A stretch of DNA of 64,000 nt from Candidatus Peregrinibacteria bacterium (GTDB lineage Bacteria; Patescibacteriota; Gracilibacteria; Peribacterales; Peribacteraceae). The notes under the pieces are model-generated. The model ran no database searches. It had not been told where the DNA came from and saw nothing but the letters and a program-made list of their open reading frames with translations. The translations under genes were made by a program, and so were the position numbers. The DNA lies in NCBI GenBank assembly GCA_018648865.1, contig JABGQH010000009.1:26142-90141 (forward strand), given 5' to 3'. This document shows positions 15,985-56,461 of the stretch, piece by piece (positions within the stretch are counted from its first letter, which is position 1; every line of letters begins with the position of its first letter).

Positions 15985-16034
15985 GCCGAAGTGGCGGAAT
16001 TGGTAGACCTGCCTGCCGGCAGGCAGGCGCGCAC
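15985..16034 (+). pseudogene. tRNA-Leu 5' fragment interrupted by a 20-nt palindrome
   Basis: Bases 15985-16007 are identical to the first 23 nt of the intact tRNA-Leu(CAG) gene 103 bp downstream. A perfect palindrome (16008-16027) follows, and then the tRNA sequence resumes for 7 nt (CGCGCAC, 16028-16034) before diverging. Removing the palindrome rejoins an uninterrupted 30-nt match. The rest of the tRNA (T-arm, 3' acceptor strand) is absent, so this copy cannot make a tRNA. Confidence 0.85.
16008..16027. repeat. Perfect 20-nt palindrome in tRNA fragment
   Basis: CCTGCCTGCCGGCAGGCAGG is self-complementary over all 20 bases and strongly GC-rich. It sits at the end of the D-loop of the truncated tRNA-Leu copy. 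Confidence 0.9.
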
Positions 16035-16087: not shown

Positions 16088-16174
16088 GCCGAAGTGGCGG
16101 AATTGGTAGACGCGCACGATTCAGGTTCGTGTGAGCGCAAGCTTGTGAGAGTTCGAGTCTCTCCTTCGGCACCA
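16088..16174 (+). tRNA. tRNA-Leu (anticodon CAG)
   Basis: Acceptor GCCGAAG pairs with CTTCGGC, discriminator A, encoded CCA. D-arm GCG/CGC, anticodon stem CACGA/TCGTG with loop TTCAGGT (CAG at 16122-16124), long variable arm and T-loop GTTCGAGTC are all present. Decodes CUG. Confidence 0.96.
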
Positions 16175-30845: not shown

Positions 30846-32525
30846 ATGAAAAAGATATGCACAAAGTGTTCGGCAGGATTTGAGATCACAGAAGAAGATA
30901 TTGATATGCTGAGTGATTTAAGTCCTGTGATTGGAGGGAAGAAATACGAAATTCCACCACCAACGCTTTGTCCTAGGTGTAGATCCAAAAGAAGGCTATC
31001 TCATGTTAACCAATTAAATTTATATGAGAGGAAATGTAATCTAACTGGAGCAAGCATTATTTCAAATATTAGACCTGAGTTGCCTTATAAGGTATATCGC
31101 CAAGAAGATTGGTACAGCGATAAGTGGGATCCATTAGATTATGGAATGAATTTTGATTTTAATAGACCATTTTTTGAACAATGGAATGAGCTTGTATTAA
31201 ATGTTCCACTCCCCAATCTATTTACAGGATATGAATTTGATGAAAATTGTGAATATACAAACCACGCAGGTAAAAATCAGAATTGTTATTTGGTTTTTGA
31301 TTCAGATGAAGACAGAGACTGCTATTACAGCTACAGCATAAATCAGTGTGTAAATTGTATGGACTGCTATCGAACTAGGAAGTCTGAATTATGTTATGAG
31401 TGTGTTGATTGTGTTAAATGTTATGAGTCTTCATTCTTACAAGATTGTAATAATTGTAGCTCTAGCATGTTTTTAAAAAACTGTACTGGATGTAAAAACT
31501 GCTTGATGTGCTCTAACATGAACAATAAAGAATATTTTGTAGAAAATAAAAAAGTTTCAAAAGAAGAGTTTGAAAACTTTAGATCATTATTGGGTTCATA
31601 TGCTTCTTTAAAGAATGCAAAAGAAAGGTTTATGAAATTAAAATTAGAGTATCCACAAAAATATATACATGGGATTCAAAACGAAGATGTAGTAGGGGAT
31701 TACCTAGTTAATTGTAAAAATGCATATATGTGCTTCGATAGCGAGGACTTATGGGATTGCAGGTATGTTTGCCAAGGTTTTATGCCTCTAAAAAATTGTA
31801 TGGATATAGATGAATGTGGAGAGGCAGAAAAGTTGTATGAGTGCACGGTTTGTGGTTACCAAATTAATTCCTGTTGCTTCTGTGACCATACATTAGGAAT
31901 GATGACTGACCTTTTATATTGTTCCCATTGCCCACATACTACAGATTCATTTGGTTGCAGAGGTGTTCAAAGAAAGGAGTACTGCATTCTAAATAAGCAA
32001 TATACAAAAGAAGAATATGAAGAATTGGTACCTAGGATTATTAATCACATGATTGAAACAGGTGAATGGGGCGAGAACTTTCCATCCACAACATCTAAAT
32101 ACGCATATAACGAGACGATGGCTCAAGATCATTATCCACTAAATAAAGAGCAGGCAGTTAAAGAAGGTTTAAATTGGCTAGATGATGAAAAGAAGATTGA
32201 TCAATACATGGGTCCAGTAAATGTATTACCAGATAATGTGAAAGATGCCCCCGATGATGTTTGTAAAAAAATCTACATTTGTGAGGAATCAGGTGAGCCA
32301 TATAAAATTATTCCTCAGGAACTTTCGTTTTATAAAGAATTAAATTTACCATTACCTAGAAAAGGTTTCTTTAAACGTAATAAGGATAGAATGAAGTTAA
32401 GAAGCCCAAGAAAATTATATGGCAGGAAATGCGAAGAGTGCGGAATTGAATTCATGACTTCTTATGCATTAGATAGAGAGGAAAAAATCTTTTGCGAATC
32501 CTGTTACCAGAAAGCTCTAATATGA
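30846..32525 (+). CDS. Cysteine-rich zinc-ribbon paralogue 1
   Basis: First of eight tandem paralogues; family function unknown. By my count it has about 42 Cys in 559 residues and no signal peptide. Order: zinc ribbon A (CTKCSAGFEIT ... LCPRCRSKRR, residues 4-50, similar to the zf-trcl type); partly lost ribbon B (KCNLTGASI); Cys-rich repeat domain 1 (about 130-230: CVNCMDC, CYECVDCVKC, CTGCKNCLMC) closed by NNKEYFVEN-KVSKEEF; domain 2 (about 290-400) closed by RKEYCILNKQYTKEEYEELV; GEWGENFP...YNET; degenerate ribbon A' (CEESGEPYKI); intact ribbon B' (CEECG...CESC). Unlike genes 2-8 it ends QKALI, not LKEVY, and its stop overlaps the next start by 4 bp (ATGA). Confidence 0.85.
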   Translation: MKKICTKCSAGFEITEEDIDMLSDLSPVIGGKKYEIPPPTLCPRCRSKRRLSHVNQLNLYERKCNLTGASIISNIRPELPYKVYRQEDWYSDKWDPLDYGMNFDFNRPFFEQWNELVLNVPLPNLFTGYEFDENCEYTNHAGKNQNCYLVFDSDEDRDCYYSYSINQCVNCMDCYRTRKSELCYECVDCVKCYESSFLQDCNNCSSSMFLKNCTGCKNCLMCSNMNNKEYFVENKKVSKEEFENFRSLLGSYASLKNAKERFMKLKLEYPQKYIHGIQNEDVVGDYLVNCKNAYMCFDSEDLWDCRYVCQGFMPLKNCMDIDECGEAEKLYECTVCGYQINSCCFCDHTLGMMTDLLYCSHCPHTTDSFGCRGVQRKEYCILNKQYTKEEYEELVPRIINHMIETGEWGENFPSTTSKYAYNETMAQDHYPLNKEQAVKEGLNWLDDEKKIDQYMGPVNVLPDNVKDAPDDVCKKIYICEESGEPYKIIPQELSFYKELNLPLPRKGFFKRNKDRMKLRSPRKLYGRKCEECGIEFMTSYALDREEKIFCESCYQKALI

Positions 32526-34174
32526 AAAACTCTTGCAGCGAATGCTCGGCAAAATTTGAAGTAACAGATAGTGATTTAGAATTCTTTGGTAAATTTAAAT
32601 ACCCCATATCTACACCTACTCTGTGTCCGGCCTGTCGAGTACAAAGGAGGATGTCTTGGAGGAACGATAGAACTTTCTACCATCGAAAATCCTCCTTATC
32701 AAAAAAACAGATGGTATCTATTTATCCAGAAAATACCCCTTGGCCTGTATATCTACAGAGTGAGTGGTATAGCGATAAATGGAATCCTTTGGATTATGGA
32801 ATTGAATTTGATTTTAGCGTTCCATTCTTTACTCAGTTTAAAGAGCTAATGATGACAGTACCTAGACTGGGTATGGATTTAATTAATTGTGAGAACAGCG
32901 AATATTGTAATTACTGTGGTGATGATAAAAACTGTTATTTAGATATTGCAGGTGAGGCCAATGAAGATTGTTACTTCTGTTTATTTACTAAATATTCAAA
33001 AAATTGCTTAGACTGCACATTCGCTTATCATTCAACTCTGTGTCATGAATGCATACAGGTTTACAACTCATATGCATGTAGGAATTCTATGTACTTAGAT
33101 AACTGCAGTGATTGCGCATTTAGTTTCGATCTAAAAGGATGCAAGAACTGCCTACTTTCTATTAACCTTCGTAATAAAGAATATTATATTTTGAACGAAC
33201 CTCATACAAAGGAGGAATATGAAAAGAAACTTTTAGAATTAAATTTGAGTTCTAATGAAGCACTAAAAAGTGTTCATGATATTTGGAAAAAAATGAGAAT
33301 TGAAAATGGAATCTATAGAGACATGTACACCTTGAATTGTGAAGACTGCACAGGAAATAACGTTAAGACATCAAAAAATTGTCATGGATGTTACAACACA
33401 ACAGACTCAGAAGATTGTAAATATTTATATGATGTCCTAGATGCAAAGGACTGTCAGGATTTAAATTACTCACTTTATAAACCAGAGGTAGCATATGAAC
33501 TCTGTTCAACGTTAAATATGACTTATAGCGCCTTCTGCTACGCTTCTCATTACAGTAATAATTGTTTCTATTGTGATAAGACAAATCATAGTAGCAACTG
33601 TTTTGGTTGTATTGGATTAGACCATATGGAGTATTGCATTCTGAACAAGCAATATACAAAGGAAGAATACGAAGAATTGCTGCCAAGAATTATCGCATAC
33701 ATGGAAAAAACTAAAGAATGGGGACAGTTCTTTCCAGTTACACTTTCACCATATGGATATAACGAAACTGTTGCCCATGAATACATGCCACTAACTCAGA
33801 AAGAGGTAGAGAAGAATGGTTGGGTTTGGACGTTGCAAGAAGAAAAGGAAAGTTACATGGGTCCAGAAGTACAAATACCAGATACAATTTCGGATGTAAG
33901 CGATGATATTTGTAATGAGCTTATAACCTGCGATAAAAGTGGTAAGCCTTTTAAGATAATTCCACAAGAGCTTAAATTTTATCGCGAGCAGGGGATTCCA
34001 ATACCTAGGAGGTCCCCAATGCAAAGGCATACAGATAGAAATGACCTAAGAAATCCACGCAAGCTCTGGGACAGAAAATGTGATAAGTGCTCAAATGATA
34101 TTCAAACAAGTTACAGTCCAGATAGGCCAGAGAAGGTTTTTTGTGAGGAATGTTATCTAAAAGAGGTATACTAG
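32522..34174 (+). CDS. Cysteine-rich zinc-ribbon paralogue 2
   Basis: 550 residues when started at MKNSCSECSAKFEVTD (32522), which aligns with the other copies; the ORF-track start adds 10 residues that read from gene 1. Ribbon A is intact (CSEC...CPAC) but its inter-knuckle loop is shorter, lacking the SPIxxGKK segment of the sisters. Ribbon B is wholly lost (KSSLSKKQM, no Cys). Domain 1 closes with LRNKEYYILNEPHTKEEYE and domain 2 with MEYCILNKQYTKEEYEEL. The invariant block reads KEWGQFFP...YNET. Ribbon A' has one Cys (CDKSGKPFKI); ribbon B' is intact (CDKC...CEECYLKEVY). The last codons contain a TATACT that fits as the promoter of gene 3. Confidence 0.85.
   Translation: MKNSCSECSAKFEVTDSDLEFFGKFKYPISTPTLCPACRVQRRMSWRNDRTFYHRKSSLSKKQMVSIYPENTPWPVYLQSEWYSDKWNPLDYGIEFDFSVPFFTQFKELMMTVPRLGMDLINCENSEYCNYCGDDKNCYLDIAGEANEDCYFCLFTKYSKNCLDCTFAYHSTLCHECIQVYNSYACRNSMYLDNCSDCAFSFDLKGCKNCLLSINLRNKEYYILNEPHTKEEYEKKLLELNLSSNEALKSVHDIWKKMRIENGIYRDMYTLNCEDCTGNNVKTSKNCHGCYNTTDSEDCKYLYDVLDAKDCQDLNYSLYKPEVAYELCSTLNMTYSAFCYASHYSNNCFYCDKTNHSSNCFGCIGLDHMEYCILNKQYTKEEYEELLPRIIAYMEKTKEWGQFFPVTLSPYGYNETVAHEYMPLTQKEVEKNGWVWTLQEEKESYMGPEVQIPDTISDVSDDICNELITCDKSGKPFKIIPQELKFYREQGIPIPRRSPMQRHTDRNDLRNPRKLWDRKCDKCSNDIQTSYSPDRPEKVFCEECYLKEVY
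34167..34172 (+). promoter_or_regulatory. TATACT box inside the end of paralogue 2
   Basis: The codons GTA-TAC-TAG (Val-Tyr-stop) contain TATACT with 8 nt to the next ATG. The preceding AAAGAGG could alternatively act as a Shine-Dalgarno 14 nt upstream. This junction shares a 59-nt identical stretch with the next one. Confidence 0.5.
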
Positions 34175-34180
34175 GCACCA

Positions 34181-35863
34181 ATGCAGAAAAAATGCTGTAA
34201 ATGTCCGGGATCGTTTGAAATAACTGACGAGGATTTAGTATTTTACGACAAAGTTTCACCAATAATTAATAAAAAGAAACACAGAATACCAACTCCTACT
34301 CTATGCACACCCTGTAGAGAGCAGAGGCGTTTAGCAATCCCGAATGTTAGAAACTTCTATTCTAGAGAATGTAATCTTTGTCAGAAGATGATGGTATCAG
34401 CATATGCATCCGATCAACTATTTACAGTCTATTGCCAAGAATGTTGGTGGGGTGATAAGTGGGATGAATTAACTTACGGTGTTGATGTTGATTTCTCACG
34501 TCCATTTATCGAGCAGATGCAAGAATTACAACTAAAAGTGCCACGGCTTACCTTGATGAATAAGGCTGCAGAGAACAGTGAGTTCTGTAACTACGCAGGA
34601 TTCAACAAGAATTGTTATCTAGCAATTGCTGGTTCGTGGTACAACGAAGATTGTTTATATGGAACGTGTTTCGATCACTCAAAAAACTCTGTGGATTGCT
34701 CATTTCTTTCTTACGGAGAATTGTGTTACGAATGCATCTATGGCACTAAATTATACAATTGTGTTTACTGTGTTGATTCCTCTGATTCCTCAGATTGTCT
34801 ATTTTCATTCAATTTAAGAGGTTGTAGAAATTGCATTCTAAGCAGTAATATACGTAACAAACAGTATTACATACGTAATAAGCAATGCACTAAGCAAGAA
34901 TTTGATGAAATCAGGAGTATGATTTCTAGGTACGAAATCTTCCAGAAATATCTAACAGAGTTTCACAAGTGGAGAAAAACACTCTTGCGTCCAGCTAACT
35001 ACAATATTAACTGTGAAGATTGTATCGGCGACTATCTGCGGAATTGCAAAAATGTAGTAAACGGCTTTATTGGAAATGGGGTAGAGGATGCAAAAAATGT
35101 TTTCATGGTTGAGTATTCAAAGGATTTTATGGACTGTTGTTTTGCAGGTTACGATAATGCTCAACTTTTCTATGAATGCATAGCCGCTGGTATAGGAGGG
35201 CAGCGTAATCAATTCTGTTTTCAGAATTGGTCATGCAATGACATACTTTATTGCGATACACCACAGTCATCATCAGACTGTTTCGGTTGCATTTGTATTC
35301 GCAATAAACAATTTTGTATTCTAAATAAGCAATATTCAAAGAACGAATACCAAGAGTTAGTACCAAGAATCATAGATCTTATGAAAAAACATGGAGAGTG
35401 GGGAGAGTTCTTTCCATCTAGCTATAGTCCATTCGCTTATAACGAGACATTTGCTCAAGACTACTATCCTCTAGCCAAAAAAGAAGCACTAATGAATAAT
35501 CTAAAATGGAGAGAGGACACTAATGAAATATTAAAAGTAGATCGAACTATACCTTCTAGTAATCTACCTGATTCTATCCATGACATTCCAGATGATATTC
35601 TTAATTGGGCTGTAATATGTGCAGAAACTGGTAAGCCGTACCGTATTGTAAAACAAGAACTTTACTATTATCGTTCACAGAACCTACCAGTTCCTCGATT
35701 ACACTACGATGCTCGCAATAAGCATCGCATCCAATTACACAATTTGAATAAGATACACAAAAAGCAATGCGACAAGTGCAACAAAGAAATGCATACAGTT
35801 TATTCAACTGATTGTTCTGAAACAGTTTTTTGTGAGGAATGTTATCTAAAAGAGGTATACTAG
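34181..35863 (+). CDS. Cysteine-rich zinc-ribbon paralogue 3
   Basis: 560 residues, starting 6 bp after paralogue 2. This is the only copy whose N-terminal second ribbon is complete: CNLCQKMMVS...VYCQECWW gives CxxC-CxxC where the sisters have CDLTGK or nothing, showing that this position was once a zinc ribbon in the family. Ribbon A is intact (CCKC...CTPC). Domain 1 closes with IRNKQYYIRNKQCTKQEF, domain 2 with IRNKQFCILNKQYSKNEY. Invariant block GEWGEFFP...YNET. Ribbon A' is degenerate (CAETGKPYRI, then RLHYDARNK); ribbon B' is intact (CDKC...CEECYLKEVY). Confidence 0.85.
   Translation: MQKKCCKCPGSFEITDEDLVFYDKVSPIINKKKHRIPTPTLCTPCREQRRLAIPNVRNFYSRECNLCQKMMVSAYASDQLFTVYCQECWWGDKWDELTYGVDVDFSRPFIEQMQELQLKVPRLTLMNKAAENSEFCNYAGFNKNCYLAIAGSWYNEDCLYGTCFDHSKNSVDCSFLSYGELCYECIYGTKLYNCVYCVDSSDSSDCLFSFNLRGCRNCILSSNIRNKQYYIRNKQCTKQEFDEIRSMISRYEIFQKYLTEFHKWRKTLLRPANYNINCEDCIGDYLRNCKNVVNGFIGNGVEDAKNVFMVEYSKDFMDCCFAGYDNAQLFYECIAAGIGGQRNQFCFQNWSCNDILYCDTPQSSSDCFGCICIRNKQFCILNKQYSKNEYQELVPRIIDLMKKHGEWGEFFPSSYSPFAYNETFAQDYYPLAKKEALMNNLKWREDTNEILKVDRTIPSSNLPDSIHDIPDDILNWAVICAETGKPYRIVKQELYYYRSQNLPVPRLHYDARNKHRIQLHNLNKIHKKQCDKCNKEMHTVYSTDCSETVFCEECYLKEVY
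35856..35861 (+). promoter_or_regulatory. TATACT box inside the end of paralogue 3
   Basis: Same GTA-TAC-TAG arrangement and identical GCACCA spacer before the ATG of paralogue 4. Confidence 0.5.
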
Positions 35864-35869
35864 GCACCA

Positions 35870-37561
35870 ATGCAGAAAAAATGTCCTAAGTGCTCGGCGT
35901 CATTTAATGTAACTGACGAGGATATTTTGCTTTTAGATAAATTATCACCAGTGATTAATTCCAAAAAGCATAGTCTGCCAGCTCCTACATTATGTTTTAG
36001 CTGCAGATTACAAAGGAGGCTAGCGTTCTATAATTCTAGATCGATTTATCCTAGGAAATGCGATCTAACAGGAAAAAACATTGTATCTATTTATTCACCG
36101 GATAAGCCATACAAAGTTTACGAGAGAAGAGAATGGTATGGGGATAACTGGGATCCATTTGAATATGGCAGAGATTTTGATTTTAATAGACCTTTCTTTG
36201 ATCAATTCAAAGAATTACTAGATTCGGTTCCACATCTTTCTTTAACAGTACTAGGAGAGACTGTTAATAGTGAATTCACTAATGACAATTTGATAGTAAA
36301 AAATTGTTATCTAATATTCGACGGAGAGAGAGCAGAGGATTGTATGTATGGTCATACATTTGTTGGTATCACTTCATGTTTAGATTTTGCAGCAGCGGTA
36401 GATTGTGAACTCTGCTATGAAACGATCCATTGCAATAATTGTTATAACTGCAAATACAGTAGATATTCTACAAATTGTAGTGATAGTTGGTTTATTAGGG
36501 ACTGCATAGGATGTAAGAACTGTTTTGGATGTGCTAATTTGAGGCAAAAACAATATTGCATATTTAATGAACAAAAAACAAAAGAGGAATACGAGAAATA
36601 CTTAGAACAATTCGATTCAACCTCGTATAAAACTGTTCAGGATATGATTAATAAAACAAATGAGTTCTTTCTGAAATATCCTGTAAAAGAATGTAGAGGA
36701 GAACAGAATGTTGATGTCACAGGGAATAATCTAAATCAATCAAAGGATTCAAAAGACTGCTTTGACTGCAACAAAGTACAGGACTGCCATTACTGCACAA
36801 ATTGCTTGGTAGGAGCAAAGGACTGCAGTGATATACATATATGGGGAGACAGCATGGAGCTCTGTTATGAAAGCTGCGTAATTGGTGTAAAGACTCAAAA
36901 CTTATTGGGCTGTTATTATGTGTCACAAGGTGCAGACAACATACTCTATTCTATGTATTGCAGCAGAAGTGTAAAAAACCTATTTGGTTGCATAGGGTTA
37001 CGGCATAAGAGCAATTGTATTTTCAACAAACAATATTCAGCAGAAGAGTATGAAGATCTAGCTGAAAGAATCGTTGAGCATATGAAGAAGACTGGAGAAT
37101 GGGGGGAGTTCTTTCCATCTTCTATATCTGGCTTTGGTTATAACGAAACAATGGCTCAGACATTCTTTCCCTTAGAAAAAGACGATGCAAAGAAGCTTGG
37201 CTATTCATGGAGTGAATACCAATCTCCTGTAGAGGCAGATCGTACGATTGATGCTTCAAAGTTGCCAGATAGTACAAATGACATCCCAGACGATGTTTTG
37301 AACTGGGCCATCGTATGCACAGATACAGGAAAGCCTTTTAAAATAATTAGGAAGGAACTTGAGTTTTATAGAGATCATAAATTGCCGATTCCTCGTAAGC
37401 ACCCAGACCAAAGGCATTACGATAGATTTGCTATTAAAAATCCATATCACCTTTGGGATAGATCATGCGATAAATGTTCTAAAGAAATTAAAACAACATA
37501 CGCACCAGAAAGGCCAGAAACAATTTTCTGTGAAGAATGCTATCTAAAAGAGGTATACTAA
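35870..37561 (+). CDS. Cysteine-rich zinc-ribbon paralogue 4
   Basis: 563 residues, the longest copy. Ribbon A CPKCSASFNVT...CFSC is intact; ribbon B keeps one Cys (KCDLTGKNIVSIY). Domain 1 has dense pairs (CYETIHCNNCYNCKYS, CIGCKNCFGC) and closes with LRQKQYCIFNEQKTKEEYE; domain 2 includes DSKDCFDCNKVQDCHYC and closes with LRHKSNCIFNKQYSAEEYE. Invariant block GEWGEFFP...YNET, then DIPDDVLNWA. Ribbon A' degenerate (CTDTGKPFKI); ribbon B' intact (CDKC...CEECYLKEVY). Six-base gaps on both sides place it firmly in one operon-like array. Confidence 0.85.
   Translation: MQKKCPKCSASFNVTDEDILLLDKLSPVINSKKHSLPAPTLCFSCRLQRRLAFYNSRSIYPRKCDLTGKNIVSIYSPDKPYKVYERREWYGDNWDPFEYGRDFDFNRPFFDQFKELLDSVPHLSLTVLGETVNSEFTNDNLIVKNCYLIFDGERAEDCMYGHTFVGITSCLDFAAAVDCELCYETIHCNNCYNCKYSRYSTNCSDSWFIRDCIGCKNCFGCANLRQKQYCIFNEQKTKEEYEKYLEQFDSTSYKTVQDMINKTNEFFLKYPVKECRGEQNVDVTGNNLNQSKDSKDCFDCNKVQDCHYCTNCLVGAKDCSDIHIWGDSMELCYESCVIGVKTQNLLGCYYVSQGADNILYSMYCSRSVKNLFGCIGLRHKSNCIFNKQYSAEEYEDLAERIVEHMKKTGEWGEFFPSSISGFGYNETMAQTFFPLEKDDAKKLGYSWSEYQSPVEADRTIDASKLPDSTNDIPDDVLNWAIVCTDTGKPFKIIRKELEFYRDHKLPIPRKHPDQRHYDRFAIKNPYHLWDRSCDKCSKEIKTTYAPERPETIFCEECYLKEVY
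37554..37559 (+). promoter_or_regulatory. TATACT box inside the end of paralogue 4
   Basis: GTA-TAC-TAA; spacer CTGCCA to the next ATG. Stop codon and spacer differ from the two previous junctions while the box is kept. Confidence 0.5.
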
Positions 37562-37567
37562 CTGCCA

Positions 37568-39247
37568 ATGCAGCAAACCTGCGAAAAGTGTTCGGCAATG
37601 TTTGAAGTCACAGAAGGGGATTTAGAGTATTACGATGAAATATCGCCTATATTTAACGGAAAGAAATACTTAATACCTCCTCCTGTTCAGTGCCCTGAAT
37701 GTCGCTTTCAGAGGAGGTTAATATTTAGAAATGAAAGAAAATTATATAAAAGAAAATCAGATGTTTCAGGAAAACAAATAGTAAGTATGTTTGCTCCAGA
37801 TAATCCACATAAAACATGTACACAGGACGAGTGGCTTAGTAATGATTTTGACGCAATGCAGTTTAGTAGAGATTTTGATTTTGATAGTCCATTTTTCGAT
37901 CAGCTAAAGGAGTTGAATATTGATGTACCGCATCCTGGTTTAAATAATACAAATGTAGAAAATAGCGAATTCACAAACTTTGCACTAAATCAGAAAAATT
38001 GTTATCTGATATTTGGAGCAGGGGATAATGAGGATTGTATATATGGAAAGTTCATTGTCTCTTCTAACAATGTTGTAGACAATTTGTCGTTATACTCCTG
38101 CGAATTTTGTTACGAAGGAGTGTCGTCTCAAAATTGTTATGAATGTACATATTTCAAAAATTGTCATAATTGTGCAAATTGCATGATGGTAGAAGACTGC
38201 AGTTCATGCAAAAACTGTTTAATGTGCTTTGGGTTAAGGAACAAGGAATATTGCATATTGAATGAGCAATTATCTAAAGAAGAATATGAAAACAGGAGAA
38301 GCAAGATTGATCCTTTAACTAATAAGAAGATTTTGGAGATGCAATTTGAATTAGATAAGTTAAAAGAAAACATTCCTCATATTGATTCTCATATATACGC
38401 GAGTGAAGATTGCACTGGTGAAACTATTTATAACAGTAAGGGGTGTCATAATTGCTTTGATATTAAGAATTGTGAGGATTGTAAATATACATCTTATACT
38501 CCGAATGGCGTTGCCTCTTACGACTCCACATTTACTGCTCCGGATGGTGTTAGGTGGTGCAATAATGTTATTTCTGCAATTGGACACAGGTGCATGGGTA
38601 CTTTCTTATGTTGGTATACAAACGATGTTTATTACTCAATTAATTGCAGGAATTGTGACTTCTGTTTTGGATGTGTTGGATTACAGAATCAAAAATATTG
38701 TATTTTCAACAAGCAATACTCAAGAGATGAGTATGAAGTCATTGTTCCTAAGATAATCAAAAAAATGGAATCTGCAGGAGAATGGGGGCATTTCTTGCCT
38801 CCAGAACTTTCACATTTTGCATATAACGAGACAATTGCTAACGAATATTTTCCTCTTCTAAAAAAAGAAGTTGAAAAGAGGGGATTTAGGTGGAGAGAAG
38901 AAGATGAAGTTATTCCAGATGTAGAAAAGATAATTCCTGCTAGTCAGCTTCCACCATCAATATCAGATATTCCGGACGATATATTAAATTGGGCTGTTAA
39001 ATGTGAAATAACAGGAAGACCATTTAGAATTATAAAACCAGAATTGAATTACTACAGAAAAATGGGTCTTCCAATTCCTCATGTTCATCCAGATGAAAGG
39101 CATAATATAAGACTTAGGAAAAAGAATCCTTACAAGCTATGGCAATGTAAGTGTGCAAACTGCTCCAAGGAAATTAAAACAACCTACGCACCAGAAAGGC
39201 CTGAAACAGTTTTTTGTGAAGATTGCTATCTAAAAGAGGTATACTAA
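37568..39247 (+). CDS. Cysteine-rich zinc-ribbon paralogue 5
   Basis: 559 residues. Ribbon A intact (CEKCSAMFEVT...CPEC); ribbon B lost (KSDVSGKQIVSMF, no Cys). Domain 1: CYEGVSSQNCYECTYFKNC, CSSCKNCLMC, closing LRNKEYCILNEQLSKEEYE. Domain 2 starts ASEDCTGETIYNSKGCHNCF and closes LQNQKYCIFNKQYSRDEYE. The invariant block is slightly changed (GEWGHFLP...YNET). Ribbon A' degenerate (CEITGRPFRI, then HVHPDERH); ribbon B' intact (CANC...CEDCYLKEVY). No membrane segment or export signal, so a cytoplasmic location is likely, where cysteines stay reduced and metal binding is possible. Confidence 0.85.
   Translation: MQQTCEKCSAMFEVTEGDLEYYDEISPIFNGKKYLIPPPVQCPECRFQRRLIFRNERKLYKRKSDVSGKQIVSMFAPDNPHKTCTQDEWLSNDFDAMQFSRDFDFDSPFFDQLKELNIDVPHPGLNNTNVENSEFTNFALNQKNCYLIFGAGDNEDCIYGKFIVSSNNVVDNLSLYSCEFCYEGVSSQNCYECTYFKNCHNCANCMMVEDCSSCKNCLMCFGLRNKEYCILNEQLSKEEYENRRSKIDPLTNKKILEMQFELDKLKENIPHIDSHIYASEDCTGETIYNSKGCHNCFDIKNCEDCKYTSYTPNGVASYDSTFTAPDGVRWCNNVISAIGHRCMGTFLCWYTNDVYYSINCRNCDFCFGCVGLQNQKYCIFNKQYSRDEYEVIVPKIIKKMESAGEWGHFLPPELSHFAYNETIANEYFPLLKKEVEKRGFRWREEDEVIPDVEKIIPASQLPPSISDIPDDILNWAVKCEITGRPFRIIKPELNYYRKMGLPIPHVHPDERHNIRLRKKNPYKLWQCKCANCSKEIKTTYAPERPETVFCEDCYLKEVY
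39240..39245 (+). promoter_or_regulatory. TATACT box inside the end of paralogue 5
   Basis: GTA-TAC-TAA with spacer TCACCA before the ATG of paralogue 6. Confidence 0.5.
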
Positions 39248-39253
39248 TCACCA

Positions 39254-40939
39254 ATGCAGAAAACTTGTACTAAATGTTCGGCTCCGTTCGAGGTAACCGA
39301 TGATGATATTAAATTTTACGAGAATGTTTCCCCTATTATAAAAGGAGAAAAGTATATTATTACTCCTCCTAAATATTGCCCTGATTGCAGATTACAGAGG
39401 AAGGTTTGCTTTCGAAATGAACGCATGTTTTATAGTCGAAAAAGTGATTTAACAGGAGATATGATGGTTTCCATATATGCTCCAGATATTCCATACAAGA
39501 TATATGATCAAGAAGAATGGTGGAGCAAGAAGTGGGATGCCAGAGACTATGGACGTGAATTTGATTTTACAAGACCATTTTTTGATCAAATGAATGACCT
39601 ATGGAAGGAGGTTCCAATAGTTACATTATGGAATTCAAACTGCGAGAATGCCACATATAACAATAACTGCTTCCATTTGAAGGATAGTTATATGAATTAC
39701 AACAGTGACGAAGGAGAGAGAATTATGTATTCATATGGAACGGAATTCTGCACTGATTCTGCTGATTGTACATTCGTACAAAAATCTGAACTTTGTTATG
39801 AATGTACCGATTGTACGAGAGCATATACATGTATATTTTCTAGTCTTTTGGATAACTGCACAGACTGCTCATTCAGTTCAGACTTGATGGGATGTAAGAA
39901 TTGTTTTGGCTGCCATGGACTTAGACAACAAAGTTATTGTTTCTTTAATGAACATCTCTCAAAAGATGAGTGGGAAGATCGTATGAAATCTATTAGTTAT
40001 ACACCACAAAATATAAGTAAATATAAAAAACAATCTGAAGAAGTGCGTATGAAGGTGCCACAAGTTGCTACAAAAATGGTGCAGTGTTCGGACAGTACAG
40101 GAAACTTTTTATATAACTGTGCCAATTCTGAAAATTGTTTTGATATGCATAATTGCGAATTTGTTAAGAATGGAATTTACGTTCCTTGGGACGTAAAACA
40201 TGCGCAAGATGTATACGCACATGCTGGAGCAGAATGGAGTTACGAAGTAATTGCAGGGGGAATAGGAATTTCACATGTTGCATTTATAAATGGTTTAGTT
40301 AGTGGCCTAAGTGATAGTTACTATTCAGTCCAATGCGGATACGGATCTAATAATCTATTTGGATGTGTAAGTATGATGAAATATAAATATTGCATTTTAA
40401 ATAAGCAGTACACAAAAGAAGAATACGAAGAGCTTGTGCCTCGTGTCATAGAACACATGAAAAAGAATGGAGAATGGGGAGAATTCTTTCCCCCTAGTAT
40501 TAGTCCATTTGCGTATAACGAAACAATGGCACAGGAATTCTTCCCTCTAACAAAAGAAGAAGCTCTTAATCAAGGATATAAATGGAGAGATATACAAGAT
40601 GAACTGCCAAAATCTGACAGAGTGATTTCTTCAGATAAGTTGCCACCATCAATCGAAGATATTCCTGACGACATCCTAAATTGGGCAATTAAATGTGAAG
40701 TTAGTGGGAGACTTTATAAAATTACATCTCAAGAATTGGATTTTTACCGTCGCATGAAATTACCGGTTCCGAGATTGCATTACGAGAAGCGCTATCAAAA
40801 CAGGGCAAAAAGTCGACCTCCACGCAAGCTTTGGAATCGCAAATGTAACAAGTGTGATATTGATATACAGACAGTCTATTCACCTGATAGGCCAGAGAAA
40901 GTTTTTTGTGAAGATTGCTATTTAAAAGAGGTATACTAA
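39254..40939 (+). CDS. Cysteine-rich zinc-ribbon paralogue 6
   Basis: 561 residues. Ribbon A intact (CTKCSAPFEVT...CPDC); ribbon B lost (KSDLTGDMMVSIY). Domain 1: CTDCTRAYTC, CTDCSFSSDLMGCKNCFGC, closing LRQQSYCFFNEHLSKDEWE. Domain 2 is poorer in Cys than in the sisters (GAEWSYEVIAGGIGISHVAFING) and closes KYKYCILNKQYTKEEYEELV. Invariant block GEWGEFFP...YNET, then DIPDDILNWA. Ribbon A' degenerate (CEVSGRLYKI); ribbon B' CNKC...CEDCYLKEVY intact. Domain 2 also contains GVS-type aromatic-rich strands, which fits a beta-solenoid interpretation. Confidence 0.85.
   Translation: MQKTCTKCSAPFEVTDDDIKFYENVSPIIKGEKYIITPPKYCPDCRLQRKVCFRNERMFYSRKSDLTGDMMVSIYAPDIPYKIYDQEEWWSKKWDARDYGREFDFTRPFFDQMNDLWKEVPIVTLWNSNCENATYNNNCFHLKDSYMNYNSDEGERIMYSYGTEFCTDSADCTFVQKSELCYECTDCTRAYTCIFSSLLDNCTDCSFSSDLMGCKNCFGCHGLRQQSYCFFNEHLSKDEWEDRMKSISYTPQNISKYKKQSEEVRMKVPQVATKMVQCSDSTGNFLYNCANSENCFDMHNCEFVKNGIYVPWDVKHAQDVYAHAGAEWSYEVIAGGIGISHVAFINGLVSGLSDSYYSVQCGYGSNNLFGCVSMMKYKYCILNKQYTKEEYEELVPRVIEHMKKNGEWGEFFPPSISPFAYNETMAQEFFPLTKEEALNQGYKWRDIQDELPKSDRVISSDKLPPSIEDIPDDILNWAIKCEVSGRLYKITSQELDFYRRMKLPVPRLHYEKRYQNRAKSRPPRKLWNRKCNKCDIDIQTVYSPDRPEKVFCEDCYLKEVY
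40932..40937 (+). promoter_or_regulatory. TATACT box inside the end of paralogue 6
   Basis: GTA-TAC-TAA with spacer ATACCA before the ATG of paralogue 7; last junction that keeps the box. Confidence 0.5.
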
Positions 40940-40945
40940 ATACCA

Positions 40946-42610
40946 ATGCAGAATTGTATTTCATGTAACGTTTCATTCGAAGATAGTCAGGCAGAGATAT
41001 CTTTAAGAGCAAAGATTGGCGATGCTATACAAAAAGGTGATTTGCCAGAGCCAAAGCTATGTTGTGACTGCAGATTAATTCAACTAATGAGTTGGAGGAA
41101 TGAACGCATTCTATATACGAGAATGTGTGATAAGAGTGGCAAAAAGATAATCTCTGTTTATCCGCAAAATGTAGCTTTCCCTGTTTATGAAAAATCTATT
41201 TGGTGGGGAGACAGTTGGAACGCCACAAACTATGGCCAGGATTATGATTTTAATAGACCATTCTTTGAGCAGTTTGCAGAATTACAAAGAAATACTCCTC
41301 GTGCGTCATTAAATACAAAGAATGTTGAGAATTGCGATTATTGTAATTTTACGTTTGATTCAAAAGATAGTTACTTAACAACGTGTTGTTATTACTCAGA
41401 ATCAATTCTATACAGTTTTTGGATGCTTGAGTGCAAAGATTGTACTGAATGTAGTTATTGTTTTCAGTGTCAGAACTGTTTGCAGTGCACTGACTGCAAT
41501 AAATCATATGGTTGCTATGAGTGTGTGCAATGCAATGTTTGCACTGATAGTTCGTACTTATTTGATTGTCGTGGTTGTACAGACTGTTTTTGTAGTGTCG
41601 GATTAAGAAATGCTAAATATCACATGTTTAATGAGAAATTATCTAAAGAAGAATTTGAAAATAGAATGAAAGAATTTGATTTGCAAAATCCAGTACATGT
41701 AGAAAAGGTAAAAGAACGATTAGATGCTTTAAAATTAAAACACCCACACAAATATTCTGTGCAGGAAAAGTGTGAAGACTCAACGGGGGACCATATAGTA
41801 GAATTAAAAGACTGCAAAAATTGCTATCAGACATTTAGATCCAGAGATTGTATAAATGTAACAGACGCGGACGGAAACAATGATTTGCTTGATTGCTATC
41901 ATACTGGTTGGTCAGAAATGATATATGAAGGATATTCACCAGTTAGACTTAGGAACTCTGCATTTGAGGTACAATGCTGGGATGGCAATGACATCTTCTA
42001 TTCAGATACATGCCAGAATTGCTCATATTGCTTTGGGTGTATTAGCTTGCGACAAAATAAATATTGCATATTGAATAAACAATATTCAAAAGAAGAATAT
42101 GAAGTAATGCTCTATAAAATAATTAATCATATGAAATCTACAGGTGAGTGGGGGAAATTCTTTCCAAATGAAATTTGTATATTTTCTTATAACGATTCTG
42201 TGGCTCAGGATGTATATCCTCTAGAAAAAGAGGAAGCAATTAAACGAGGATGGAAATGGCAAGATAATCTCCCATTTACTATGGGAAAGGAAACTACAAC
42301 TTGGAATAGCTATGAAATGAAGATTGAAAAGGTGCAAGAAGATATATTAAATGAGATATTTGCCTGTGAATGTTGTAAAAAGAATTATCGTATAATTAGA
42401 TCTGAACTCAAGTTTTATAAACAAATGAAGTTACCATTATCTAGGCTTTGTTCAGGATGTAGACACTTAGAAAGGATCAAGACCAGAAATCCAAGAAATT
42501 TACATAACAGAACATGTAATAAATGTAATAAGGAAATTCAAACCACTTTTGCACCAGAAAGACCAGAAAAGGTTTACTGCGAGGAATGTTATTTGAAAGA
42601 GGTTTATTGA
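40946..42610 (+). CDS. Cysteine-rich zinc-ribbon paralogue 7
   Basis: 554 residues with about 47 Cys by my count (8.5 percent), the richest part being CKDCTECSYCFQCQNCLQC. Ribbon A is present but diverged (CISCNVSFEDS...CCDC). Ribbon B keeps one Cys (MCDKSGKK). Unlike genes 1-6 the C-terminal ribbon A' is complete: CECCKKNYRI...RLCSGCRH. Ribbon B' is intact (CNKC...CEECYLKEVY). The invariant block reads GEWGKFFP...YNDS, with NDS where others have NET. Its last codons are GTT-TAT-TGA, so the TATACT box is absent, and the next paralogue is 42 bp away with its own promoter. Confidence 0.85.
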   Translation: MQNCISCNVSFEDSQAEISLRAKIGDAIQKGDLPEPKLCCDCRLIQLMSWRNERILYTRMCDKSGKKIISVYPQNVAFPVYEKSIWWGDSWNATNYGQDYDFNRPFFEQFAELQRNTPRASLNTKNVENCDYCNFTFDSKDSYLTTCCYYSESILYSFWMLECKDCTECSYCFQCQNCLQCTDCNKSYGCYECVQCNVCTDSSYLFDCRGCTDCFCSVGLRNAKYHMFNEKLSKEEFENRMKEFDLQNPVHVEKVKERLDALKLKHPHKYSVQEKCEDSTGDHIVELKDCKNCYQTFRSRDCINVTDADGNNDLLDCYHTGWSEMIYEGYSPVRLRNSAFEVQCWDGNDIFYSDTCQNCSYCFGCISLRQNKYCILNKQYSKEEYEVMLYKIINHMKSTGEWGKFFPNEICIFSYNDSVAQDVYPLEKEEAIKRGWKWQDNLPFTMGKETTTWNSYEMKIEKVQEDILNEIFACECCKKNYRIIRSELKFYKQMKLPLSRLCSGCRHLERIKTRNPRNLHNRTCNKCNKEIQTTFAPERPEKVYCEECYLKEVY

Positions 42611-42637
42611 TTCTTATACGTAATATCAATTTGCTGT

Positions 42638-42643
42638 TATTAT
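42638..42643 (+). promoter_or_regulatory. Extended -10 box of paralogue 8
   Basis: TGtTATTAT ends 9 nt before the ATG of paralogue 8, in the only junction long enough to hold a separate promoter. Confidence 0.5.
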
Positions 42644-42652
42644 ATTTAAGTA

Positions 42653-44320
42653 ATGCAAAAAACATGTAACCAGTGTTCAACTTCATATGAAATATATGAT
42701 GATGACAAAGCGCTTCTACATAAAATTTCGCCTACAATTGGTGGTAGAAAATTTGAAATACCAGTATCGGATATTTGCCCAGAATGTAGGCAGCAACGTA
42801 GAATGTCCTTTAGAAACGAAAGGAAGCTGTATCGCAGGAAATGTGATGTTACAGGCAAGGATATCATTTCTATATTCTCTTCGGACTCTCTTTTTAAGGT
42901 ATGTGATAAGGATTACTGGTATAGCGATAAATTTGATCCCTTGGAATATGGCAGAGACTATGATTTTAATAGGCCATTCTTTGAGCAATTCAAGGATTTG
43001 TCATTAACAATCCCTATGCCATCTATGCGCGTGGAAAGGTCAGAGAATTGTGATTTTAACAATGACATGGGGGATTGTAAGAACTGTTACTTGTGTGCAC
43101 GAACACATCAGTCACAGGATCTTATATACACATACAGAGGCAACAGATCATCTAGTTCAATAGATTGCACTCAGATAACCAGATCAGAGATTCTTTATGA
43201 ATGTGTTGATTGTGTTAAGTGCTACAACTGTAAATATTCATTCTTTTGTAGTGAATGTACAGATTGTTCTTTTCTACTTGATTGTAGGAGTTGCATGTCC
43301 TGCTTTATGTGTACAAATCTTAGGAGTAAACAGTATTGTTTCTTAAATGAGCAACTAACCAAAGAAGAGTACGAGAAAAGACTTTCAGAATTTAATTTTG
43401 GTTCTTATGACCATGTTCAAAGAGCTTACAAAATGTACGCAGATATAAAAAAGAAAGCCATCCGTAGGAATCTTATAAAAGTAAATGCAAACAACTCAAC
43501 AGGCGACAATTTAATAGACTGTAATAATTGCCATATGTGCTTTAGCACTCAGTTTACAGAGGACGGTAGGTATCTGTGGGATGTTAAGGATTACAAGGAT
43601 TCAATGGATGCATATAGCGGAGGAAGAAATAGTGAGCTTATGTACTACACAACTGCAGGGGCTGCTTCGTATAGTGTTCAGTTTTGCTTTAGGACATCTG
43701 GATGTAATGATGTTTTGTATTCGTTCTATATTAATACATCTAAAAACATATTTGGATCTATCGGTTTAAAAAGGGGAAACTTTTGCATTCTAAACAAGGA
43801 ATATACAGAAGATGAATATAACGATCTGATGCCAAAGATTATTGATCATATGATCAGCACTGGTGAGTGGGGCAAGTTCTTTCCGTCTTCCCTTTGTCCA
43901 TTTGCTTATAATGAAACTGTTGCTGACGAATTCTTTCCCCTAGATAAGGGAAGAGCTAACGATTTAGGATATAGGTGGAAAGAAGATGATCCAAAGGATT
44001 TTATGCCTCAAACATATAACATTCCAAATAACATTTCTGATGTTAAGGATGATATTTTAAATGAGGTTTTGGCATGTGATACATGTAATAAGAATTACAA
44101 GATAGTTCCTGCTGAACTTAAGTTTTATAGAAATCATAATCTAGCTATTCCTAGGTACTGCATCGATTGCAGACATATGAGGAGAAATAAAACAAAGAAC
44201 CCAATGAGAATTAGAAAAGACATTTGCAAGAAATGTAATTCAGAAATGGATACTACATATCCAGAAGGAACAGATATGCAGATAATTTGTGATGATTGCT
44301 ATCTAAAAGAGGTTTATTAA
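42653..44320 (+). CDS. Cysteine-rich zinc-ribbon paralogue 8
   Basis: 555 residues, last of the array. Ribbon A intact (CNQCSTSYEIY...CPEC); ribbon B keeps one Cys (KCDVTGKDIISIF). Domain 1: CVDCVKCYNCKYSFFCSECTDC, CRSCMSCFMC, closing LRSKQYCFLNEQLTKEEYE. Domain 2 closes RGNFCILNKEYTEDEY. Invariant block GEWGKFFP...YNET. Ribbon A' is complete as in gene 7 (CDTCNKNYKI...RYCIDCRH), and ribbon B' is CKKC...CDDCYLKEVY. Genes 7 and 8 therefore look like the less derived branch. It ends GTT-TAT-TAA with no promoter box and nothing translated immediately after. Confidence 0.85.
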   Translation: MQKTCNQCSTSYEIYDDDKALLHKISPTIGGRKFEIPVSDICPECRQQRRMSFRNERKLYRRKCDVTGKDIISIFSSDSLFKVCDKDYWYSDKFDPLEYGRDYDFNRPFFEQFKDLSLTIPMPSMRVERSENCDFNNDMGDCKNCYLCARTHQSQDLIYTYRGNRSSSSIDCTQITRSEILYECVDCVKCYNCKYSFFCSECTDCSFLLDCRSCMSCFMCTNLRSKQYCFLNEQLTKEEYEKRLSEFNFGSYDHVQRAYKMYADIKKKAIRRNLIKVNANNSTGDNLIDCNNCHMCFSTQFTEDGRYLWDVKDYKDSMDAYSGGRNSELMYYTTAGAASYSVQFCFRTSGCNDVLYSFYINTSKNIFGSIGLKRGNFCILNKEYTEDEYNDLMPKIIDHMISTGEWGKFFPSSLCPFAYNETVADEFFPLDKGRANDLGYRWKEDDPKDFMPQTYNIPNNISDVKDDILNEVLACDTCNKNYKIVPAELKFYRNHNLAIPRYCIDCRHMRRNKTKNPMRIRKDICKKCNSEMDTTYPEGTDMQIICDDCYLKEVY

Positions 44321-46812: not shown

Positions 46813-46897
46813 GCCATGTAGTAAGAACTTTCTCGTTTTTGTTGTATTTATTGGCCTGCCATGTAGTGAACGAACGAAGTGAGTTCTACTACATGGC
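46813..46897. repeat. 45-nt repeats 3' of tRNA-Ser(TGA)
   Basis: Two copies of GCCATGTAGT (46813 and 46858) are 45 nt apart, and the inverse ACTACATGGC (46888-46897) overlaps the tRNA 3' end, forming a hairpin with the nearer copy. The same unit is repeated downstream of tRNA-Ser(GCT). Confidence 0.75.
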
Positions 46898-46984
46898 GGA
46901 GAGAGAGGGATTCGAACCCTCGAGACCCTGTAAGAGCCTAACGGTTTTCAAGACCGTCGCCATCGACCACTCGGCCACCTCTCC
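46894..46984 (-). tRNA. tRNA-Ser (anticodon TGA)
   Basis: Minus-strand GGAGAGG pairs with TCTCTCC (one G-U), discriminator G, encoded CCA. Anticodon loop CTTGAAA between ACGGT-type arms gives TGA; a long variable arm and T-loop GTTCGAATC are present. A TATAAT box lies 6 nt upstream (46991-46996). Decodes UCA and related serine codons. Confidence 0.95.
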
Positions 46985-47060: not shown

Positions 47061-47116
47061 GACCACTTTACCCCGCACTTGAGCGAAGCTCATAGTGTAG
47101 GGTCGGCCACCTCTCC
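47061..47116 (-). pseudogene. tRNA-Ser(TGA) 5' fragment split by a hairpin
   Basis: On the minus strand 47116-47103 repeats the first 14 nt of the tRNA-Ser(TGA) gene exactly; a 36-nt insert follows that folds as CACT-a-TGAGC-TTC-GCTCA-AGTG flanked by CCC/GGG; then the tRNA resumes for 6 nt (GTGGTC, 47066-47061) and diverges. The split is in the D-loop. An extended -10 TGcTATAAT lies 7 nt before the fragment (47124-47129), so the fragment has its own promoter. Confidence 0.8.
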
Positions 47117-56100: not shown

Positions 56101-56338
<238 letters not shown>

Positions 56339-56401
56339 GTGGTAATGGATGCGATAATAACATTATAACACTTTCACCCGCCGAAGCGTAGCGTAGGAGG
56401 G

Positions 56402-56461
56402 CGACCACCATGCCCTATACCTGAGCTTTTTAGCGATTGGTATGGGGTCTGGCACCTCTCC
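56402..56461 (-). pseudogene. tRNA-Ser(GCT) 5' fragment split by a hairpin
   Basis: On the minus strand the first 14 nt of tRNA-Ser(GCT) (56461-56448) are repeated exactly, a 39-nt insert follows that pairs CCC-ATACC with GGTAT-a-GGG, and the tRNA resumes for 7 nt (GTGGTCG, 56408-56402). The break point is the same D-loop position as in the tRNA-Ser(TGA) fragment, but the inserted hairpin sequence is different. Confidence 0.8.

What the first reader, a model, noticed from the sequence alone, without database searches (positions are those of the whole stretch)
56339..56461. Third case at tRNA-Ser(GCT), broken at the identical D-loop position
Again 14 nt, a different 39-nt hairpin, then GTGGTCG. 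Three of four tRNAs in the window show the same architecture with unrelated hairpins, all inserted in the D-loop of a 5' copy. This is too regular for chance and suggests either a family of tRNA-D-loop-targeting hairpin elements or tRNA-like regulatory leaders.
Basis: partly seen in the sequence, partly recalled or inferred. Interest (0 to 1): 0.75.

Follow-up and report, generated by a model that had tools for sequence, protein, structure and literature searches.

The report
Broken tRNA-start repeats before tRNA genes
In this uncultured Peribacteria genome and its relatives, many tRNA genes are preceded by one to five short repeats, each a copy of that tRNA's own first 10-25 letters broken by a hairpin; this looks like a real and, as far as I could search, undescribed kind of repeat array that the cell probably trims off when it processes the tRNA.

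Summary
At tRNA-Ser(GCT) the first 14 nt recur exactly 123 nt upstream, followed by 39 nt containing a hairpin, then GTGGTCG. In the host genome (Peribacteria, Patescibacteria) 16 of 44 tRNAs have such a cognate 5' copy; non-cognate tRNA starts give 0 of 1634. I collected 132 loci with a copy, covering 32 kinds of tRNA. The feature is common in the host family, absent from one other family of the class, and sporadic elsewhere in Patescibacteria. The structure is leader/promoter - (U)n - tRNA, with n = 0 to 5. U is tRNA nt 1 to ~20 broken by a palindrome, usually after nt 13, plus a spacer; the tRNA's own 5' end is the last repeat. Sister genomes differ in n, including filled/empty pairs. Y1 transposase is absent from the host. 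The same hairpin also sits between direct repeats at protein genes in a relative. An antisense-switch model found no support. Best reading: a tolerated, tRNA-anchored array of palindromes inside the pre-tRNA leader, removed by RNase P, copies kept identical by repeat turnover. A regulatory role is not excluded. How units are born, and why copies start exactly at tRNA nt 1, is unresolved.

The parts
56247..56338 (-). tRNA-Ser(GCT), intact; its 5' end is the last repeat of the unit
   Evidence: ARAGORN; Rfam RF00005 57.7 bits
56448..56461 (-). exact copy of tRNA-Ser(GCT) nt 1-14 (GGAGAGGTGCCAGA); identity runs on to 56464 (CAC)
56412..56447 (-). palindrome breaking the copy after nt 14 (CCCCATACC..GGTATAGGGC)
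56402..56408 (-). resumed tRNA homology GTGGTCG
56339..56401 (-). spacer between the broken copy and the intact tRNA
46894..46984 (-). tRNA-Ser(TGA), intact
47103..47116 (-). exact copy of tRNA-Ser(TGA) nt 1-14
47071..47102 (-). palindrome (CCCTACACTATGAGCTTCGCTCAAGTGCGGGG), then GTGGTC at 47066-47061
16088..16174 (+). tRNA-Leu(CAG), intact
15985..16008 (+). exact copy of tRNA-Leu(CAG) nt 1-24
16009..16026 (+). perfect palindrome CTGCCTGCCGGCAGGCAG breaking the copy; GCGCAC of the tRNA resumes at 16029

Best explanation
SHOWN: many tRNA genes of Peribacteria (and sporadically of other Patescibacteria) are preceded by an array (U)n, n = 0-5. U is a partial copy of the tRNA's own 5' end, starting at mature nt 1 and usually broken at the D-arm by a palindrome, plus a spacer; the intact tRNA's 5' end is the last repeat. 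At several Ile(GAT) loci a promoter-like sequence lies upstream of the array and also upstream of the empty locus, so the array lies between it and the tRNA. INFERRED: the array is transcribed as pre-tRNA leader and cut off by RNase P, so it is tolerated. It behaves as a selfish or neutral palindrome-bearing tandem repeat: units are gained and lost by slippage or recombination between the tRNA-start direct repeats, which regenerates copies identical to the current tRNA and gives exact loss to n = 0. Palindromes arise or are swapped by insertion into, or template switching at, hairpin loops (nested hairpins, changing apexes). New units arise when a palindrome enters a gene start together with a partial duplication that leaves one intact copy downstream; insertions without that would kill an essential tRNA and are not seen. 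Birth is the least certain step.
For: Cognate specificity 16/44 vs 0/1634 (G000), 9/30 vs 0/780 (G001), 8/29 vs 1/612 (G012). In 11 of 15 multi-copy loci the copy nearest the tRNA has a left flank identical or nearly so to the tRNA's left flank (14-107 nt, <=2 mismatches), while the outermost copy is usually unrelated; 111 of 117 single copies have an unrelated left flank; one Lys locus has 5 copies (L401). Copies start at nt 1: leftward identity falls off as by chance except in inner repeats. Filled/empty pairs within genera g24, g25, g32 and g28. In g28 three species share the derived T8->G in the copy, and G084 is empty with nearly the same leader as G082, so loss is the simpler reading there. 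Promoter-like TTGACC-17-TACCCT lies before the copy when filled and before the tRNA when empty. RNase P RNA present, 129.6 bits. The hairpin's variable base pair covaries (79% paired vs 53% shuffled, max 68%), 50 distinct apexes in 56. The same hairpin sits between significant direct repeats at non-tRNA sites of G028: a protein gene start (940365), a 41-nt repeat pair (145967), and 134669 and 153371.
Against: In G000 all 11 strict hairpin-base matches in the 779 kb examined lie in tRNA leaders, which tolerance alone does not explain. Copies stay about 96.5% identical to the tRNA where leader and spacer show no similarity (67 of 92 loci, mean 0.46 mismatches in 13), so selection on the copy is not ruled out. 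Conserved extras (AGYY-TCC-RRCT-TCGC second hairpin following the cognate D-loop; shared Leu and type-2 motifs) could mean function. No birth event was caught. No RNA data exist here, so transcription and RNase P removal are inferred.
Confidence: 0.55

Rival explanations
1. A functional cis-acting pre-tRNA leader: the copy of the acceptor 5' strand competes with the real one for the tRNA's 3' strand and tunes folding or processing.
For: In 53 of 85 folded pre-tRNAs the copy is predicted to take the 3' acceptor strand; the own acceptor stem falls from 0.97 to 0.27, and the MFE fold of Ser(GCT) does this. Copy identity is kept where flanks show no similarity. Hairpin arms covary.
Against: Competition follows trivially from sequence identity, and the energy model under-penalises large multiloops. 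The region between copy and tRNA is not enriched in antisense to the cognate tRNA start (mean rank 0.51). Copy mismatches keep G-U pairing only weakly more than expected (7 of 11 transitions vs 39%, my estimate p about 0.09). Many tRNAs, and sister loci, lack it.
Confidence: 0.2
2. A mobile palindromic element family (RPE- or REP-like) with its own insertion machinery that targets hairpin loops, tRNA arms above all, and leaves long direct repeats.
For: Nested hairpins in loops; breaks in the D-arm, and in single examples the anticodon arm, plus T-arm breaks in downstream copies; the same hairpin elsewhere with direct repeats; tRNA-restricted in G000.
Against: No Y1 transposase in G000, G005, G008, G014 or G019; repeat length varies (10-41 nt) but its left edge is tRNA nt 1, unlike a fixed-length target duplication.
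Confidence: 0.15
3. Scars of integrative elements that recombine into tRNA genes, the upstream copy being the displaced 5' end.
For: Displaced fragment plus restored tRNA at empty/filled pairs; mirrored 3' fragments downstream.
Against: Intervals of mostly 50-250 nt with no gene; tandem units up to 5; 32 kinds of tRNA each with its own core. No integrase search was made.
Confidence: 0.05
4. Assembly artefact or chance.
For: Assembled metagenomes; one tandem region carries Ns (Lys(TTT)).
Against: Seen in many independent assemblies including a single-contig 1.25 Mb genome; non-cognate control near zero.
Confidence: 0.01

Closest known systems
Rickettsia palindromic elements (RPE) and other dispersed small palindromes
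   Same: Short palindromes, variable apex, nested copies, in-frame insertion into a coding sequence seen here too (G028:153371, unit of 48 nt)
   Different: Here tied to tRNA leaders with a cognate tRNA-start repeat and tandem units; no sequence comparison with RPE was made
REP/REPIN elements with TnpA-REP (Y1) transposase
   Same: Imperfect GC-rich hairpins with a conserved foot
   Different: No Y1 transposase in the host; direct repeats flank the hairpin
Minisatellite-type tandem repeats
   Same: Units of ~70-120 bp, variable number, identical inner units
   Different: Anchored on and ending in a functional tRNA 5' end
tRNA-gene attachment-site fragments of integrative elements
   Same: A displaced tRNA fragment beside a restored tRNA
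   Different: No element body; array structure; 5' side mostly
Template-switch hairpin formation (PMC8794818)
   Same: Could create and repair perfect stems, explaining changed apexes and covariation without RNA selection
   Different: Does not by itself give the tRNA-start repeat

Membership tests
Tandem repeat array | Head-to-tail near-identical units | tested here: met
   15 multi-copy loci, n=2-5, most with inner flanks identical; most loci are n=1, i.e. a direct repeat only
Tandem repeat array | Copy number varies between close relatives | tested here: met
   n=0/1 within genera; population-level variation not testable here
REP with RAYT transposase | Y1 (PF01797) transposase in the genome | tested here: not met
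   0 in G000. Matches occur in 21 of the 36 genomes searched, but several genomes with the feature (G005, G008, G014, G019) have none
Rickettsia palindromic elements | Sequence homology to RPE families | not tested
   no RPE set at hand
Rickettsia palindromic elements | Dispersed insertion of one palindrome into many genes | tested here: inconclusive
   G028: 10 of 15 away from tRNAs; G000: 0 of 11
tRNA-targeting integrative element | Integrase gene and cargo between att repeats | tested here: not met
   Intervals mostly 50-250 nt, no room for a gene
T-box or other known structured RNA | Match to an Rfam model | tested here: not met
   Only the four tRNAs match in the window
Attenuator-type RNA switch | Cognate antisense segment between copy and tRNA | tested here: not met
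   mean rank 0.51 against non-cognate tRNAs; single loci may still have one

The most novel reading that the evidence does not exclude
A cis-acting RNA element class in which a broken, cognate copy of the tRNA's own 5' end in the pre-tRNA leader acts as a competing acceptor strand (or is regenerated from mature tRNA, which would explain why copies begin exactly at mature nt 1), setting tRNA maturation in genome-reduced Patescibacteria.
Probability: 0.2. Interest if true: 0.85.

Novelty: new variant of a known kind. Interest (0 to 1): 0.6.

Why it matters
It is a tRNA-by-tRNA repeat system across a family of uncultured bacteria: over a third of the host's tRNA genes carry a cognate, broken copy of themselves in front. 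If neutral, it shows palindromes and repeats persisting in an otherwise compact genome by hiding in pre-tRNA leaders that RNase P discards, and gives natural filled/empty sites to study how short palindromes are born and lost. If functional, it would be a new way to control tRNA maturation in a phylum with few experimental data.

Tried and rejected
Chance (non-cognate control). Y1/HUH transposase as the agent in cis. Fixed-length target-site duplication: repeats are 10-26 nt in tRNAs and up to 41 nt elsewhere, with the left edge at tRNA nt 1. Duplication of leader plus tRNA start: leader and spacer show no similarity in 67 of 92 loci, and clear similarity is mostly at inner units of arrays. 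Attenuator-like antisense switch: no cognate enrichment. G-U-retaining mismatch test for pairing with the 3' strand: weak only. A first, stricter stem filter missed most loci and was replaced. Literature: no description found in the PMC library; one search failed on its terms. The five-genome Peribacteria paper PMC4736985 reports 46 tRNA genes and, in the passages found, no leader repeats.

Full report
Observation. On the minus strand, tRNA-Ser(GCT) begins at 56338. Its first 14 nt recur exactly at 56461-56448, followed by 39 nt containing the hairpin CCCCATACCAATCGCTAAAAAGCTCAGGTATAGGGC, then GTGGTCG. Ser(TGA) has the same break and a hairpin with a similar base; Leu(CAG) has a 24-nt copy broken by CTGCCTGCCGGCAGGCAG; Leu(TAA) has none.

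Genome-wide. A scan of all tRNAs of the host genome (1.13 Mb) found many more cases, all copies of the tRNA's own start. With <=1 mismatch in 12 nt and 260 nt upstream, 16 of 44 tRNAs have a cognate copy and none of 1634 non-cognate tests hits; a same-genus genome gives 9/30 vs 0/780, G012 8/29 vs 1/612 and G028 3/43 vs 1/1518. A genome of another family of the class gives 0/30, while one of another class (G245) gives 4/32. A hairpin-base pattern hits 20 of the other 35 family genomes tested and none of 23 genomes of other families in the class. A stricter pattern over GTDB genomes hit 58 stretches, nearly all Patescibacteria (many Peribacteria, also Kaiser-, Yanofsky-, Lipton-, Magasanik-, Uhr- and Roizmanbacteria titles); most lie 50-250 nt before a tRNA whose first 13 nt match the copy, although the pattern leaves nt 1-7 free. 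In an even phylum sample the pattern is rare outside the family.

Anatomy. I gathered 132 loci with a copy over 32 kinds of tRNA. Copies begin at mature nt 1: identity further left falls off as by chance except in inner repeats. The break is after nt 13 in 88 of 119 class I copies, otherwise nt 10-26; the pattern searches favour nt 13. Palindromes also break an anticodon loop in a Thr copy (L108) and replace the anticodon arm in two Lys copies (L105, L358), so some copies reach about nt 61 and lack only the 3' acceptor strand. Mirror-image 3' fragments follow some tRNAs.

Array structure. Fifteen loci have 2-5 copies. In 11 of them the copy nearest the tRNA has a left flank identical or nearly so to the tRNA's left flank (14-107 nt, <=2 mismatches), while the outermost copy is usually unrelated; 111 of 117 single copies have an unrelated left flank. 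Hence: leader - (U)n - tRNA, with the tRNA's own start as the last repeat. In four multi-copy loci no such flank identity is left.

Dynamics. For Ile(GAT), 59 of 74 family genomes match the first 13 nt and about a third of those carry it twice within 150 nt. Within genera g24, g25 and g32 one species is filled and another empty with an alignable leader. In g28, G028, G082 and G083 share the derived T8->G in the copy, the same 15-nt post-hairpin motif and the same spacer end, whereas G084 is empty with nearly G082's leader, so exact loss is the simpler reading there. Promoter-like TTGACC-17-TACCCT precedes the copy when filled and the tRNA when empty. RNase P RNA is present in the host. Transcription of the leader and its removal are inferred.

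Palindromes. The hairpin base pair that varies covaries (79% paired, shuffles mean 53%, max 68%) and there are 50 distinct apexes among 56. Selection on RNA structure and template-switch repair (PMC8794818) both predict this. In G000 all 11 strict matches in the 779 kb examined are in tRNA leaders; in G028 10 of 15 are elsewhere. Four sites away from tRNAs in G028 (from a slightly wider set of 17 hairpins) are flanked by significant direct repeats, one of them at a protein gene start (ATGAAACTTCTCATGATTT - hairpin - spacer - ATGAAACTTCTCATGATTT). The process is therefore not tRNA-specific in principle.

Function tests. Folding predicts that the copy can take the tRNA's 3' acceptor strand in 53 of 85 loci, and the Ser(GCT) MFE does so. 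That follows from identity and is not evidence of use. The segment between copy and tRNA is not enriched in antisense to the cognate tRNA, and mismatch types are only weakly suggestive. Copies remain about 96.5% identical where leader and spacer show no similarity; repeat turnover can explain that without selection, but I have no direct measure of turnover.

Conclusion. The feature is real, cognate, family-wide and dynamic. I favour a tolerated array of palindrome-broken tRNA starts in pre-tRNA leaders. The birth event, and why copies start exactly at mature nt 1, remain unexplained; a functional leader stays possible. I found no earlier description, but the searched library is partial.

Noticed in passing
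window 30846-44320 (+): Eight consecutive ORFs of 554-563 aa in a row, which look like a tandem paralogous cluster.
   Followed up: no
window 56246-56202 and 46893-46858 (-), and trailers of many host tRNAs: Directly after the tRNA CCA lie palindromes that pair back onto the CCA end (GCCATGTAGTAG..CTACATGGC; ACCATTCGACTC..ATGGTAAACCA); 18 of 20 matches of the trailer pattern in the 779 kb examined are next to tRNAs.
   Followed up: partly
L401 (G245, tRNA-Lys): Five copies of the tRNA-Lys start in front of the gene, in units of about 70 bp, in a different class of Patescibacteria.
   Followed up: partly
G028:C1 about 940365 (-), locus L180: The same hairpin architecture at a protein gene start: the first 19 nt of the ORF are duplicated around a hairpin and spacer.
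   Followed up: partly
G028:C1 153371 (+), locus L134: The same hairpin type inserted in frame (48 nt) near the N-terminus of what reads like a RibB/RibBA protein, flanked by 16-nt repeats; my reading of the frame, not searched against a family library.
   Followed up: no
L235, L236, L293, L294, L310 and G001 Val(TAC) (L269): A second element type with conserved GTCGAG..hairpin..CGAGC, A-rich stretch and CGCGA, plus, in some, a segment antisense to tRNA nt ~13-30.
   Followed up: partly
G001 Leu tRNA loci (L282 and others among L263-L292) and host L032: Leu leaders share a GTGAATACCTC-like motif after the hairpin across several isoacceptors, also seen upstream of host Leu copies.
   Followed up: no
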